Part shown: positions 10,081 through 59,397 of the stretch, one piece after another
Position numbering within the stretch: the first letter of the stretch is position 1
Layout: each line of letters opens with the position of its first letter
NCBI GenBank assembly: GCA_030673965.1
Contig: JAUTCN010000004.1
Span: forward strand, 1 to 64,000
Direction: 5' to 3'
DNA length: 64,000 nt
DNA from: Fusobacterium sp. JB019
Lineage (GTDB): Bacteria; Fusobacteriota; Fusobacteriia; Fusobacteriales; Fusobacteriaceae
Notes under the pieces: generated by a model
Databases searched by the model: none
What the model was told of the DNA's origin: nothing
Seen by the model: the letters and a program-made list of their open reading frames with translations, nothing else
Program-made: the position numbers and the translations under genes

Positions 10081-11148
10081 ATGAAAGACATTATCTCTAT
10101 TAAAAATTTTACCAAAGATGAAATTTTAGAAATTTTAAAAGAAGCTAAAAGCTTAAAAGAATTTCCTAAAACAAATCTTATTGAAAATAAAATTGTTGCT
10201 ACTCTCTTCTTTGAACCATCAACAAGAACTAGACTTTCATTCACTTCAGCAAGCTTTAAAATAGGAGGTAAAGTTCTTGGATTTGATAGTCCTGATGCTA
10301 CCTCTTTAAAAAAAGGAGAAAGTTTAAGAGATACAATTAAAGTTACTGAAGGTTATGCCGATATAATTATTATGAGGCATTTAAGGGATGGAGCTGCTAA
10401 ATTTGCTAGTGAAGTTGCCAATGTTCCTATAATTAATGCTGGCGATGGGGCAAACGAACATCCTAGTCAAACTCTTCTAGATTTATATACAATTAAAGAT
10501 AATCTTAAATCTATTGATAATTTAACTACTGCTTTTATCGGTGATCTCAAATATGGAAGAACTGTGCATTCTTTAACTGAAGCTCTATCTAAGTTTCAAG
10601 GGCAAACTTTTTACTTTATAGCTCCTGAAGAAATACAGATTCCTAAAGAAATTCAAAAAGAATTAGATTTAAAAGGAATCAATTATAAACTACTTTCTGA
10701 TTATAAAGAAATATTAAAAGAAGTTGATGTTCTTTATATGACTAGAATTCAAAAAGAAAGATTTGAAAATCCTGAATTATATGAAAAAGTAAAAAATACA
10801 TTTGAAATTTCTAAAGAAACTATTTTAGGAAAATGTAAAGAAAATATGATTATATTACATCCTTTACCTAGGGTAAATGAAATCAATATTGATTTAGATG
10901 ATACTAAACACGCTTTATATTTTGAACAAGCTAAAAATGGAGTACCTGTAAGAGAAGCTATGATTGGAATTGCCTTAGATAAAATTAATATTGCTTCAAT
11001 AAAAAAAGAAACATCTATTGTTAAAAAAAGTAATCAAAATATTTGTCCAAATAAAAATTGTATAACTAAATTTGAACAAACAGAAAATAATATAGTCATA
11101 AAAAATAATGAAAAATTCTGTTATTATTGTGGAAAAAAAATTAATTAA
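10081..11148 (+). CDS. pyrB: aspartate carbamoyltransferase with PyrI-type zinc ribbon
   Basis: PyrB joins carbamoyl phosphate and aspartate. Catalytic-chain motifs are present: FEPSTRTRLSF (carbamoyl phosphate loop), HPSQTLLDLYT and HPLPRVNEI. The catalytic chain normally ends near residue 310; here the protein continues to 355 with a Cys4 module: C322-x4-C327 ... C347-x2-C350 (CPNKNCITKFEQ, FCYYCGKKIN). This matches the zinc domain at the end of the regulatory chain PyrI, but the nucleotide-binding allosteric domain of PyrI is absent. First gene of pyrB-K-D-F-C-E, controlled by the upstream attenuator. Identity is certain; the effect of the zinc tail (assembly or intersubunit contacts) is inference. 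Confidence 0.96.
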   Translation: MKDIISIKNFTKDEILEILKEAKSLKEFPKTNLIENKIVATLFFEPSTRTRLSFTSASFKIGGKVLGFDSPDATSLKKGESLRDTIKVTEGYADIIIMRHLRDGAAKFASEVANVPIINAGDGANEHPSQTLLDLYTIKDNLKSIDNLTTAFIGDLKYGRTVHSLTEALSKFQGQTFYFIAPEEIQIPKEIQKELDLKGINYKLLSDYKEILKEVDVLYMTRIQKERFENPELYEKVKNTFEISKETILGKCKENMIILHPLPRVNEINIDLDDTKHALYFEQAKNGVPVREAMIGIALDKINIASIKKETSIVKKSNQNICPNKNCITKFEQTENNIVIKNNEKFCYYCGKKIN

Positions 11149-15483: not shown

Positions 15484-15590
15484 ACAAAAAAAGAAAATGA
15501 AAAGGGGCAATTTTCATTTTCTTTTTTATTTATAAGTATAAGATTAAGGAAATCAGACGGGTTATTAGGAATTCAATTCCGCCTTCTATA
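15484..15590 (-). ncRNA. candidate small RNA, copy 1 of a two-copy family
   Basis: About 105 bases from a minus-strand promoter TTTACA (15619-15624), 17-base spacer, TAAAAT (15596-15601), to the terminator at 15487-15527. A 5' hairpin pairs AGGCGG (15584-15579) with CCGTCT (15560-15555). A linker ending TTATAAATAAAA and the terminator with loop UUGCCCC follow. The segment aligns without gaps to the sequence at 59283-59362 (63 of 80 positions identical by hand count), including promoter, hairpin, linker and loop, and the hairpin shows a compensatory C-G to U-A change. No ORF of note is on this strand. Whether it is transcribed is not shown. Confidence 0.68.
15487..15527. terminator. bidirectional terminator between pyrE and the first sRNA copy
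   Basis: Seventeen-base perfect arms (15487-15503 and 15511-15527) around the loop GGGGCAA (UUGCCCC on the minus strand), with A-runs before and T-runs after. On the plus strand it ends the pyr operon; on the minus strand it is the 3' hairpin of the candidate sRNA at 15484-15590. Confidence 0.9.
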
Positions 15591-15595
15591 AATGA

Positions 15596-15639
15596 ATTTT
15601 ATCAATAATATTGTGTTTTGTAAAATATTATTATATAAT
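15596..15639. promoter_or_regulatory. overlapping divergent promoters of the sRNA and the LysR gene, with LysR-type box
   Basis: Plus strand: TTGTGT (15611-15616), 17 bases, TATAAT (15634-15639) for the LysR gene. Minus strand: TTTACA (15619-15624), 17 bases, TAAAAT (15596-15601) for the sRNA. Between them is an inverted repeat AATAATATT (15604-15612) / AATATTATT (15624-15632), whose T-N11-A core is the usual LysR-type operator form. The layout suggests the LysR protein controls both itself and the sRNA. Confidence 0.6.
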
Positions 15640-15673
15640 GGTACTATAAGCAAAACTTATAAGGAGAAAATCA

Positions 15674-16576
15674 ATGACACTTAAAGAAATGGAATATGTT
15701 ATTACAATTGCTAAATATGAAAGTTTTTCAAAAGCCGCTGATGTACTTTTTGTAAGTCAATCTGCTCTAAGTCAAGCTATTACAAAACTTGAAAAAGAAT
15801 TAGGATTGCAACTTTTTAGACGTAACAACAAAAATGTTTCTTTGACTTTTGCTGGAGAAATGTTTTTTAAAAAAGGTGAAGAAATATTAAATCTTACTAG
15901 TAGATTCAGTAATGAATTAAATACTTTAGCTTCTTGTAAAAAAAGAATTATTAGACTTGGGATCCATCAATCTTATGGTAAGTATTTTTTACCTAAGTTA
16001 ATTCCTTTCTACAAAAAATTATTACCTAATGTGCAGATAAAAATGATTGAAGATTATTCAGCTAATTTAGAAAAATTATTATTAGAAGATAAGTTAGATG
16101 TTATTATTTCCACTTTCCAAGAAAAAAATTCTAAACTTTCGTACAAGAAATTTTTTGAAGAAAATATTCTTTTAGCTATAGCTAAAAATAATCATCTAAA
16201 CAGAGATTTTGACGAAGATGAAAACATTAAAGAAATTGACTTAACTAATTTTAAAGATGAAAACTTTATATTGTTAATCAAAGAATTTAAATCTAGAAAA
16301 ATCATTGATAATATTTGTAAAAGTTTAAATTTTACACCTAACTGTATTCTAGAATCAAAAGATTTTGATACAATAAATTCTTTAGTTGCTCAAAATATGG
16401 GAGTTGGTTTTGTCCCAAGTTCTATAAATAAAGATCGAAATTCCAATTACTATAAAATAAAAAATGTTGATAGTAATAGAAATTTCTATATTGTTTATAA
16501 GAAAAATATTGTTCATAGACCTTATATTATTGCAGAATTTATTAAACTTGCAGAAAATGCAATGATTAACTATTAA
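15674..16576 (+). CDS. LysR-family transcriptional regulator
   Basis: A 300-residue LTTR. The N-terminal winged helix-turn-helix is clear (residues 1-60: SFSKAADVLFVSQSALSQAI followed by KLEKELGLQLFRR), and residues 90-295 form the two-lobed effector-binding domain (IIRLGIHQSYGKYFLPKL at its start). ATG with AAGGAG upstream. The ligand cannot be told. The only divergently transcribed neighbour is the candidate sRNA at 15484-15590, and the shared promoter region holds a T-N11-A palindrome, so the sRNA is the best guess for a target. Downstream is a terminator shared with fabG. Confidence 0.9.
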   Translation: MTLKEMEYVITIAKYESFSKAADVLFVSQSALSQAITKLEKELGLQLFRRNNKNVSLTFAGEMFFKKGEEILNLTSRFSNELNTLASCKKRIIRLGIHQSYGKYFLPKLIPFYKKLLPNVQIKMIEDYSANLEKLLLEDKLDVIISTFQEKNSKLSYKKFFEENILLAIAKNNHLNRDFDEDENIKEIDLTNFKDENFILLIKEFKSRKIIDNICKSLNFTPNCILESKDFDTINSLVAQNMGVGFVPSSINKDRNSNYYKIKNVDSNRNFYIVYKKNIVHRPYIIAEFIKLAENAMINY

Positions 16577-56808: not shown

Positions 56809-59163
56809 ATGGCTAAATTAGACCAAAATTTAACACCATTATTCACAGTTTTAAAAGATGTTTATGCAAAAAAAAATGTAACTCCCTTTCATGTTCCTGG
56901 ACACAAACAAGGAAATGGAATGGATGAAGAATTTCTTGAATTTATAGGGAGAAATCCTTTAAAAATAGATGTTACTATTTTTAAAATGGTTGATGGACTT
57001 CATCATCCTACAAGTCACATAAAAAAAGCTCAAGAATTAGCTGCAGATGCTTATGGAGTAAACCAAAGTTTTTTTGCTGTTAATGGTACTTCTGGAGCCA
57101 TTCAGGCTATGATTCTTTCTGTTGTAAAATCAGGAGAAAAAATATTAGTTCCTAGAAATGTTCATAAATCAGTTTCAGCTGGAATTATCCTATCTGGAGC
57201 TATTCCTATTTATATGAACCCTGAAATTGACAATAATTTAGGGATTGCTCATGGAGTAAAACCTCATACAGTTGAAAAAATGTTAGAACAACATCCTGAT
57301 GTAAAAGCAGTTTTAATCATAAATCCTACTTATTATGGAGTTGCTACTGATATTAAAAAAATTGCTGATATTGTTCACAGCTTCGATCTTCCTTTAATTG
57401 TGGATGAAGCTCACGGACCTCATCTTCATTTTCATGAAGATTTACCTATCTCGGCTGTTGATGCTGGAGCAGATATTTGCTGCCAAAGCACTCATAAAAT
57501 AATTGGAGCTATGACTCAAATGTCCCTATTACATGTAAACTCTACAAGAGTTAACCCTAATAGAATTCAACAAATATTGAGTTTATTACATACAACTTCT
57601 CCTTCTTATCCTCTTATGGCATCACTTGATTGTGCTAGAAGACAAATTGCCACAAAGGGAAGAGAACTTATATCTAAAGCCATTGAGCTTGCTAACTTCA
57701 CTAGATCTGAGCTTAATAAAATCCCTGGAGTTTATTCTTTTGGAGAAGAAATTGTTGGAAGAGAAGGAGTTTTTGCTTTTGATCCAACAAAATTAAGTAT
57801 TTCAGTAAAAGAAATGGGAATAACTGGATTTGAATTAGAAAGAATCCTAATTGAAGAATATAATATTCAAATGGAACTTTCTGATTTCTATAATGTTCTT
57901 GGTCTTATAACTCTAGGAGATTCTAAAGAAAGTGTTACAAAATTAATAGATGCACTTAAAGATATTAGTGCTCGATTCTTTGATACTAAAGATGTTAAAC
58001 CTATTAAATCAGTTAGAATTCCTTCAGTACCAGAACAAGTCTTAATACCAAGAGAAGCTTTCTATAGTGATACAAATGTTATTCCTTTTGATGAAAGTGA
58101 AGATAAAATTTGTGCAGAGATGATAATGGCTTATCCACCTGGAATTCCAATTATTACACCTGGAGAAAGAATTAGTAAAGAAATTATAGATTATGTTTAT
58201 GAGCTAAAAGAAACTAAAACTCAACTTCAAGGAATGGACGATTCCGATTTAAATACTATTAAAATTATCGAAGAAGAAGATGCTATGTATATTTATACTG
58301 AAAAAATGAAAAATAAGTTGTTTGGAGTTCCTTTAAATTTAGGAGCTGACAAATCTGGTATAGAATTTGGTATTGATGTATTAGTTGAAACTTATCCTGA
58401 TACTTTTGATGAAATTGAAATAATAGAAGTGAATAAACAAAGGGAAAACTTCAACACTCCTAATTTAAAATATAAAAATACAATTTTACATACATGTGAA
58501 AAGCTTGCAAAAGCAGTAGATGAAGCTATTGTAGATGGTTATAGACCTATTATCATAGGAGGAGACCATTCCATTTCTTTAGGAAGTATCTCTGGAGTTG
58601 CTAAAACTAATAAAAATTTAGGAGTAGTTTGGATTGATGCCCATGCAGATATGAACACTGATGAAACTACACTAACTGGTAATATTCATGGAATGCCTTT
58701 AGCTTTACTTCAAGGAGCTGGAGATCCAGATATGGTTGATTGCTTCTTCAAAGGAAGAAAAATTAATCCTAAAAATGTTGTTATAATTGGAGCTAGAGAT
58801 ATTGATGTTAGAGAATATGACGTTATAAAAGAACTTGGAGTTAAAGTTATTCATTATGATGATATTATAAGAAAAGGAATGGACAATGTCTTAGAAGAAA
58901 TCAATGATTATTTAGATATTGAAGATATCCATATAAGTTTAGATATCGATTCTATCAATCCTAATTGTGCTCCTGGAGTAAGTACTCCTGTTAAAAATGG
59001 TTTAGATGAAGATGATGTTTACAAAACTTTTAAGTTTTTATTTAAAAATTATTTTATAACTTCTGTAGACATTGTTGAGTATAATCCAACATATGATAAG
59101 AATAACAAAACAGCACACCTTGTTAAAGATTTTACAGATTATATTCTAAACCCTATATATTAA
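56809..59163 (+). CDS. fusion of Orn/Lys/Arg decarboxylase and arginase-type ureohydrolase
   Basis: A 784-residue fusion. Residues 1-490 are a PLP fold-type I amino acid decarboxylase of the short SpeA/Cad type: TPFHVPGHKQG, VDEAHGPHLHF (D199, H202) and CQSTHKIIGAMTQ with PLP Lys230; its C-terminal part has MAYPPGIPIITPGE. Residues ~525-784 are a ureohydrolase with all manganese ligands: H587 (GGDHS), D610, H612, D614 (DAHAD), D712, D714. The stretch NTDETTLTGNIHGMP keeps the Asn, Ser/Thr, Asn and His that bind arginine's amino-acid end in arginase, so it is arginase-like. Together they would turn arginine into putrescine plus urea via ornithine, or via agmatine if the decarboxylase prefers arginine. 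ATG behind AAGGAGG. Confidence 0.9.
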   Translation: MAKLDQNLTPLFTVLKDVYAKKNVTPFHVPGHKQGNGMDEEFLEFIGRNPLKIDVTIFKMVDGLHHPTSHIKKAQELAADAYGVNQSFFAVNGTSGAIQAMILSVVKSGEKILVPRNVHKSVSAGIILSGAIPIYMNPEIDNNLGIAHGVKPHTVEKMLEQHPDVKAVLIINPTYYGVATDIKKIADIVHSFDLPLIVDEAHGPHLHFHEDLPISAVDAGADICCQSTHKIIGAMTQMSLLHVNSTRVNPNRIQQILSLLHTTSPSYPLMASLDCARRQIATKGRELISKAIELANFTRSELNKIPGVYSFGEEIVGREGVFAFDPTKLSISVKEMGITGFELERILIEEYNIQMELSDFYNVLGLITLGDSKESVTKLIDALKDISARFFDTKDVKPIKSVRIPSVPEQVLIPREAFYSDTNVIPFDESEDKICAEMIMAYPPGIPIITPGERISKEIIDYVYELKETKTQLQGMDDSDLNTIKIIEEEDAMYIYTEKMKNKLFGVPLNLGADKSGIEFGIDVLVETYPDTFDEIEIIEVNKQRENFNTPNLKYKNTILHTCEKLAKAVDEAIVDGYRPIIIGGDHSISLGSISGVAKTNKNLGVVWIDAHADMNTDETTLTGNIHGMPLALLQGAGDPDMVDCFFKGRKINPKNVVIIGARDIDVREYDVIKELGVKVIHYDDIIRKGMDNVLEEINDYLDIEDIHISLDIDSINPNCAPGVSTPVKNGLDEDDVYKTFKFLFKNYFITSVDIVEYNPTYDKNNKTAHLVKDFTDYILNPIY

Positions 59164-59218: not shown

Positions 59219-59252
59219 TAGAGCTATAAGTTTTTCTTATAGCTCTATTATT
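59219..59252 (+). terminator. Rho-independent terminator after the decarboxylase-arginase gene
   Basis: TAGAGCTATAAG (59219-59230) and its exact complement (59236-59247) around a five-T loop, then TTATTTTTT-type tail. Confidence 0.88.
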
Positions 59253-59261
59253 TTTTACTAT

Positions 59262-59290
59262 TTTACTTTTATTTTCTTTTCTGATAGAAT
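59262..59290 (+). promoter_or_regulatory. promoter of the second sRNA copy
   Basis: TTTACT (59262-59267), 17-base spacer, TAGAAT (59285-59290). It corresponds in position and spacing to TTTACA-17-TAAAAT in front of the first copy (15596-15624). Confidence 0.55.
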
Positions 59291-59296
59291 TCAAAT

Positions 59297-59397
59297 ATAT
59301 TAGATGGAAGAAAATTCCTAATTTCCCATCTAGTTTCCTTAACCTTATAGTTATAAATAAAAAAAAATGGAAAGTTGCCCCTTCCCATTTTTTTTTA
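59297..59397 (+). ncRNA. candidate small RNA, copy 2 of a two-copy family
   Basis: About 100 bases between the promoter at 59262-59290 and a terminator with 12-bp perfect arms (59359-59370 and 59385-59396). The 5' hairpin pairs AGATGG (59302-59307) with CCATCT (59326-59331). The linker TTTCCTTAACCTTATAGTTA and the terminator loop containing TTGCCCC (59375-59381) match copy 1 at 15484-15590. It lies between the decarboxylase-arginase gene and kdsC, on the opposite strand from copy 1. The ORF on the other strand here has no ribosome site. Transcription is predicted only. Confidence 0.65.

What the first reader, a model, noticed from the sequence alone, without database searches (positions are those of the whole stretch)
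15484..15590. Two-copy candidate sRNA family with conserved promoter, compensatory base change and UUGCCCC terminator loop
The minus strand at 15603-15484 and the plus strand at 59283-59397 align without gaps for about 80 bases (63 identical by hand count), although they lie 44 kb apart, in opposite orientation, and with unrelated flanking genes. The conserved part includes a sigma-70-like promoter with 17-base spacing (TTTACA/TAAAAT and TTTACT/TAGAAT), a 5' hairpin (AGGCGG/CCGTCT versus AGATGG/CCATCT, with a C-G to U-A compensatory pair), a linker CCTTA-x-CTTATA-x-TTATAAATAAAA, and a terminator whose loop holds UUGCCCC in both. Neither copy has an ORF with a ribosome site. A C-rich single-stranded loop is the usual seed of sRNAs that pair with G-rich ribosome sites; GGGGCAA occurs once in pyrB coding sequence (10447-10453), which may be chance. 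KhpA, reported as an sRNA-binding protein in F. nucleatum, is encoded in the window.
Basis: partly seen in the sequence, partly recalled or inferred. Interest (0 to 1): 0.82.

Follow-up and report, generated by a model that had tools for sequence, protein, structure and literature searches.

The report
LysR-linked small RNA pair in Fusobacterium
Two copies of a roughly 105-base RNA gene in a Fusobacterium genome belong to a conserved, apparently undescribed small-RNA family that sits back-to-back with one regulator gene in six of seven related species and carries that regulator's probable binding site, so the regulator probably works through the RNA.

Summary
The similarity of the two copies continues upstream of the promoters into a perfect dyad, TATAAG-N5-CTTATA, centred 63 bases before the predicted start in both. 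This dyad occurs exactly twice in the 2.27-Mb genome, both times at these RNAs. Copy A is divergent from a LysR-type regulator gene (15674-16576). A covariance model made only from copies A and B gave weak hits in three other species, each lying directly divergent from the LysR orthologue. Reading those loci showed the same unit in 6 of 7 held species of the genus: dyad at -63, promoter, hairpin, conserved linker, terminator loop with GCCCC. The seventh species lacks both LysR and RNA. None was found elsewhere in the family, and Rfam has no match. Copy B is a duplicate in two sister species that kept the operator.

Best explanation: a LysR-activated trans-acting sRNA with the GcvA/GcvB and OxyR/OxyS layout. 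The C-rich terminator loop and the UUUCCUUAA linker are probable seeds. Targets are unknown: exact loop-complement sites at ribosome sites are not shared between two sister species. Transcription was not testable, and published Fusobacterium sRNA tables could not be opened.

The parts
15674..16576 (+). LysR-type transcriptional regulator (300 aa), divergent from sRNA copy A; probable activator of both sRNA copies
   Evidence: Pfam HTH_1 and LysR_substrate; orthologues 56-90% identical in 5 further genus genomes, each with the sRNA divergent from it
15645..15661 (.). Operator dyad IR1 of copy A, TATAAG-N5-CTTATA, centre -63 from predicted sRNA start; also at the predicted lysR start site
   Evidence: Only two perfect dyads in the whole genome, both at the sRNAs; same spacing in all 8 genes
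15625..15639 (.). Second, weaker inverted repeat IR2 of copy A (ATTAT-N5-AATAT), centre 21 bases from IR1; overlaps the lysR -10
   Evidence: ATTAT-N5-A(A/C)TAT at +21 in every sequence examined; coordinates
15611..15639 (+). Predicted lysR promoter TTGTGT-N17-TATAAT
   Evidence: Sequence reading; inference
15596..15624 (-). sRNA A promoter TTTACA-N17-TAAAAT with extended -10 TG
   Evidence: upstream block aligns without internal gaps in 8 genes
15486..15590 (-). sRNA copy A, predicted transcript of about 105 nt
   Evidence: CM R1/R2 match; R2 E 1e-10; predicted ends only
15555..15584 (-). 5' hairpin of sRNA A (AGGCGG/CCGTCT)
15524..15552 (-). Linker TTTCCTTAATCTTATACTTATAAATAAAA of sRNA A; TTTCCTTAA.CTTATA kept in all 8 genes (one extra A in G004); possible seed
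15486..15527 (-). Terminator of sRNA A with loop TTGCCCC (15504-15510); the same hairpin faces the end of pyrE on the + strand
59225..59241 (.). Operator dyad IR1 of copy B, centre -63; lies inside the terminator hairpin of the upstream gene (59219-59247)
59247..59261 (.). Second inverted repeat IR2 of copy B (ATTAT-N5-ACTAT)
59262..59290 (+). sRNA B promoter TTTACT-N17-TAGAAT with extended -10 TG
59296..59397 (+). sRNA copy B, predicted transcript of about 105 nt
   Evidence: R2 E 4e-12; orthologue in G002 at the same locus
59302..59331 (+). 5' hairpin of sRNA B (AGATGG/CCATCT)
59334..59362 (+). Conserved linker of sRNA B
59359..59397 (+). Terminator of sRNA B with TTGCCCC in the loop (59375-59381)

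Best explanation
Copies A and B are two paralogous genes for a non-coding, trans-acting sRNA of about 105 nt. The LysR-type regulator encoded next to copy A binds the TATAAG-N5-CTTATA dyad centred near -64, and the weaker repeat near -42, of both genes. When its inducer is present it activates both sRNAs from an extended -10 sigma-70 promoter. The same sites sit on the lysR promoter, so it should repress itself. The sRNA ends in a terminator whose loop exposes GCCCC, and carries a single-stranded UUUCCUUAA-N-CUUAUA linker. One or both pair with G-rich or AAGGA ribosome sites of mRNAs and mostly repress them, perhaps with KhpA/KhpB as helper. Shown by sequence: the gene family, its structure, the dyad and its fixed spacing, and the linkage with LysR in six species. 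Inferred: transcription, LysR binding and activation, inducer, base pairing, targets.
For: The dyad occurs twice in 2.27 Mb, both at the sRNAs, with its centre exactly -63 in all 8 genes. Model R1, made from copies A and B alone and blind to LysR, gave hits in G001, G003 and G006 (E 0.08-0.63) that lie 93-111 bases divergent from the LysR orthologues found separately; chance is about 1e-4 per genome. All six LysR-bearing genomes have the RNA; G005 has neither. The operator-promoter pattern of 23 bases matches with 0-1 mismatches only at these 8 genes in 7 genomes. IR spacing resembles GcvA on gcvB (-65, -43) and OxyR on oxyS (-66, -44) (PMC5002191). 5' hairpin: 95% of cells paired, against 29-52% for slid versions; CG/UA/UG at one pair. 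Terminator stems differ between clades yet stay paired while GCCCC is kept. C-stretch seeds are usual in fusobacterial sRNAs (PMC11005410).
Against: No transcript data. Covariation is modest: 2 of 6 hairpin pairs change on both sides, and shuffles often reach that (307/500). Exact AGGGGCAA sites at start regions (putatively trpE, a DUF502-like and a YidE-like gene in G000) are not found at the same genes in G002. TTAAGGAAA before ATG is rarer than its reversed control. LysR action could be repression rather than activation.
Confidence: 0.72

Rival explanations
1. The RNA is real and LysR-linked, but acts mainly in cis or as a protein-binding RNA (for example a decoy for KhpA/KhpB or for the LysR itself) rather than by base pairing with distant mRNAs.
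For: No conserved target site was found. The terminator of copy A is antisense to the end of the pyrE transcript.
Against: The pyrE neighbourhood is not shared by the other species, where the RNA lies by lgt or other genes. The linker and GCCCC loop are kept in sequence while stems change, as expected for pairing seeds.
Confidence: 0.14
2. The sequences are 5' leader attenuators or terminated leaders of downstream genes, not free sRNAs.
For: Copy B lies about 80 bases upstream of kdsC on the same strand, and the RNA precedes lgt on the same strand in G004 and G006.
Against: Downstream genes differ between species, and copy A converges on pyrE. The constant neighbour is the divergent LysR gene.
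Confidence: 0.06
3. A dispersed DNA repeat or mobile element that happens to carry a promoter and terminator.
For: Two copies in opposite orientation 44 kb apart.
Against: Exactly two copies per genome at the same places in G000 and G002, one copy beside LysR in four other species, no match in phage, plasmid or viral collections.
Confidence: 0.02
4. The transcript encodes a small peptide.
For: Copy B has ATG GAA GAA AAT TCC TAA within the hairpin.
Against: No start codon, frame or ribosome site is shared among the copies.
Confidence: 0.02

Closest known systems
GcvA / GcvB (gammaproteobacteria)
   Same: LysR-type gene with divergent sRNA; dyad of the form 5-N5-5 at about -65 and a second one about 21-22 bases closer; probable autorepression from the same sites (PMC5002191; PMC1557403)
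   Different: RNA does not match the Rfam families and is about half the length of GcvB (own knowledge); regulator is not GcvA; a second sRNA gene carries the same operator; no other operator copies found
OxyR / OxyS (enterobacteria)
   Same: LysR-type gene with divergent sRNA of similar length (OxyS ~109 nt, own knowledge); inverted repeats at -66 and -44
   Different: Regulator scores far below the OxyR models' cut-offs; no Rfam match of the RNA; the dyad differs (ATAAG-N5-CTTAT, not ATAG-N7-CTAT)
FoxI and FoxJ (Fusobacterium nucleatum)
   Same: Fusobacterial sRNAs with a C-stretch seed, in FoxJ within a hairpin loop (PMC11005410)
   Different: FoxJ is sigma-E dependent, about 156 nt and lies upstream of ylmH; here the promoter is sigma-70-like and LysR-linked
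RepG (Helicobacter pylori)
   Same: A C-rich terminator loop; in RepG it is the proven pairing site for a G-repeat (PMC8295292)
   Different: Target and pairing not shown here; different promoter and regulator

Membership tests
LysR-controlled divergent sRNA (kind: GcvA/GcvB, OxyR/OxyS) | sRNA gene divergent from a LysR-type regulator gene | tested here: met
   6 of 6 genomes with this LysR
LysR-controlled divergent sRNA (kind: GcvA/GcvB, OxyR/OxyS) | Inverted repeats near -65 and -43 of the sRNA start | tested here: met
   Centres -63 and -42 from the assumed start in the genes examined; start sites are predicted, not mapped
LysR-controlled divergent sRNA (kind: GcvA/GcvB, OxyR/OxyS) | Regulator binds and activates the sRNA gene | not testable with these tools
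   Needs gel shift and deletion data
LysR-controlled divergent sRNA (kind: GcvA/GcvB, OxyR/OxyS) | sRNA regulates mRNAs by base pairing | tested here: inconclusive
   Conserved seeds, but no shared target site
GcvB or OxyS RNA families (Rfam) | Match to the family's covariance model | tested here: not met
   No Rfam match at gathering threshold anywhere in the window
OxyR regulator | Score above the curated OxyR model cut-off | tested here: not met
   106.8 bits against a cut-off of 329
CidR / GltC / CynR regulators | Score above the curated model cut-off | tested here: not met
   180.6/415, 167.1/350, 143.5/277 bits
FoxJ sRNA | Location upstream of ylmH and sigma-E promoter | tested here: not met
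   Location differs; the sigma-E motif itself was not compared
Published F. nucleatum FunR sRNA list | Identity with a listed sRNA | not testable with these tools
   The 2021 atlas, the 2022 PNAS and the 2024 NAR papers are not held; supplements were not available

The most novel reading that the evidence does not exclude
A LysR-type regulator whose whole direct regulon, apart from itself, is one or two sRNA genes, so that it controls the cell only through RNA, in a phylum whose model species lacks Hfq and ProQ.
Probability: 0.35. Interest if true: 0.75.

Novelty: new member of a known kind. Interest (0 to 1): 0.6.

Why it matters
Few fusobacterial sRNAs have a known control and function (FoxI, FoxJ). 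This pair has a named probable regulator, a defined operator and defined seeds, so the circuit can be tested at once. The same layout, a LysR gene with a divergent sRNA, in Fusobacteriota and Proteobacteria suggests that it arises repeatedly or is very old. The duplicated copy that kept the operator shows how a regulator gains a second RNA output.

Tried and rejected
Exact 25-base linker pattern in GTDB contigs and IMG/VR: no match. The nearest named genus genomes seem to be left out there. Plasmid and phage collections: none. Copies at the pyrE and kdsC loci of the other five species: absent; the RNA was found elsewhere, next to LysR. Targets: all 43 AGGGGCAA sites in G000 and 78 of the 80 in G002 were read; start-region sites are not shared. 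TTAAGGAAA plus start codon is depleted rather than enriched. Duplex energies against window genes gave no outstanding pair. Repeat, leader and peptide readings were considered and rejected.

Full report
CHECK OF THE OBSERVATION. The minus strand at 15603-15484 and the plus strand at 59283-59397 match as described: 60 of 77 identical bases in the ungapped block, alignment score 83 against 15.0 +/- 2.9 for shuffled pairs. The promoters, the hairpin with a C-G/U-A change and the TTGCCCC loop are real. Two details need correction. GGGGCAA is not limited to pyrB, and the similarity does not stop at the promoter.

THE MISSED PART. The alignment continues to a perfect dyad, TATAAG-N5-CTTATA, at 15645-15661 (A) and 59225-59241 (B). 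In the whole 2.27-Mb genome this dyad occurs twice, at these two places only. The gene that starts at 15674, divergent from copy A, is a LysR-type regulator.

PHYLOGENY. Covariance model R1, made from copies A and B alone, finds both copies in G002 at the same loci: pyrE | A | lysR, and decarboxylase-arginase | B | kdsC. The pyrE and kdsC loci of five other genus members lack it. A separate protein search found LysR orthologues at 56-60% identity in G001, G003, G004 and G006, none in G005 and none in other genera at E <= 1e-50. The weak R1 hits in G001, G003 and G006 (E 0.63, 0.63, 0.08) turned out to lie 93-111 bases upstream of, and divergent from, those LysR genes. For one random hit the chance is about 1e-4 per genome, so three agreeing genomes are strong independent evidence. 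Reading the loci showed the unit in all six species, G004 included.

ANATOMY. In all 8 genes the dyad centre lies exactly 63 bases before the assumed first base, which follows the -10 by five bases. A second, weaker repeat ATTAT-N5-A(A/C)TAT lies 21 bases nearer. The -10 is extended by TG. Then follow a 5' hairpin, the linker TTTCCTTAA-N-CTTATA (invariant apart from one inserted A in G004), and an A/T-rich terminator stem whose sequence differs between the two clades while GCCCC stays in the loop. On a fixed alignment the hairpin is paired in 95% of cells, against 29-52% for slid versions, with CG, UA and UG at one pair. Covariation counts are small, and some measures are reached by many shuffles. 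Model R2 finds the 8 genes at E 4e-12 to 9e-9; the next match in 61 family genomes has E 0.09. Only a limited number of candidates per genome was scored, so further weak copies cannot be excluded. No ORF is conserved. No Rfam family matches.

MECHANISM. In GcvA-gcvB the inverted repeats are at -65 and -43 from the sRNA start, and in OxyR-oxyS at -66 and -44 (PMC5002191). GcvA activates divergent gcvB (PMC1557403). The layout here is the same, at about -63 and -42 from a predicted start. In copy A the repeats cover the predicted lysR -10 and start, which suggests autorepression. Copy B has no LysR gene beside it but keeps the dyad, which there also forms the terminator hairpin of the gene before it. 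The full operator-promoter pattern matches with 0-1 mismatches only at the eight sRNA genes across seven genomes, and not at all in G005. Binding and activation by LysR remain inference.

RNA ACTION. C-stretches are accepted seeds in F. nucleatum sRNAs (PMC11005410), and a C/U-rich terminator loop is the proven seed of RepG (PMC8295292). Of UUGCCCC only GCCCC is kept across the genus. Exact complements of the loop (AGGGGCAA) at start regions in G000 lie before genes that look like trpE, a DUF502-type membrane protein and a YidE-type transporter (identified by eye from their first residues). G002 has such sites at other genes. So the targets are open.

EVOLUTION. In G001, G003 and G004 the lysR-sRNA unit lies 5-6.4 kb from kdsC, and in G001 and G003 also about 4 kb from pyrE. 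In G000 and G002 the two copies stand next to pyrE and kdsC. A local duplication later split by rearrangement would explain this; it is inference.

LIMITS. G004 corresponds to a contig labelled Fusobacterium sp. in GTDB (34306-base contig), so the genus is Fusobacterium. Whether these RNAs are already listed as FunR sRNAs in the published atlas could not be checked. A search for Fusobacterium with LysR and sRNA found no paper in the held library.

Noticed in passing
59219-59247: The terminator hairpin of the decarboxylase-arginase gene contains the complete LysR-type dyad, so one sequence may serve as terminator and as operator.
   Followed up: partly
56809-59163: A 784-aa protein joins an Orn/Lys/Arg decarboxylase-type domain with an arginase domain, an unusual fusion.
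   Followed up: no
L159 1-1452 and L160 2414-3862: In G003 and G006 the LysR gene is followed at once by a PyrK-like/GltD-like fusion gene (NfnAB-type; NCBIfam PRK12778 best for L160), a hint at redox or nitrogen control.
   Followed up: partly
15674-16576: Two cysteines (in LxSCKK and in the later IC-S/E-SL stretch) are kept in all six LysR orthologues; possible redox sensing.
   Followed up: no
whole genomes G000, G002, G003, G006: TTAAGGAAA followed within 12 bases by ATG is rarer than the reversed control pattern (10 against 43 in G000).
   Followed up: no
   Followed up: yes
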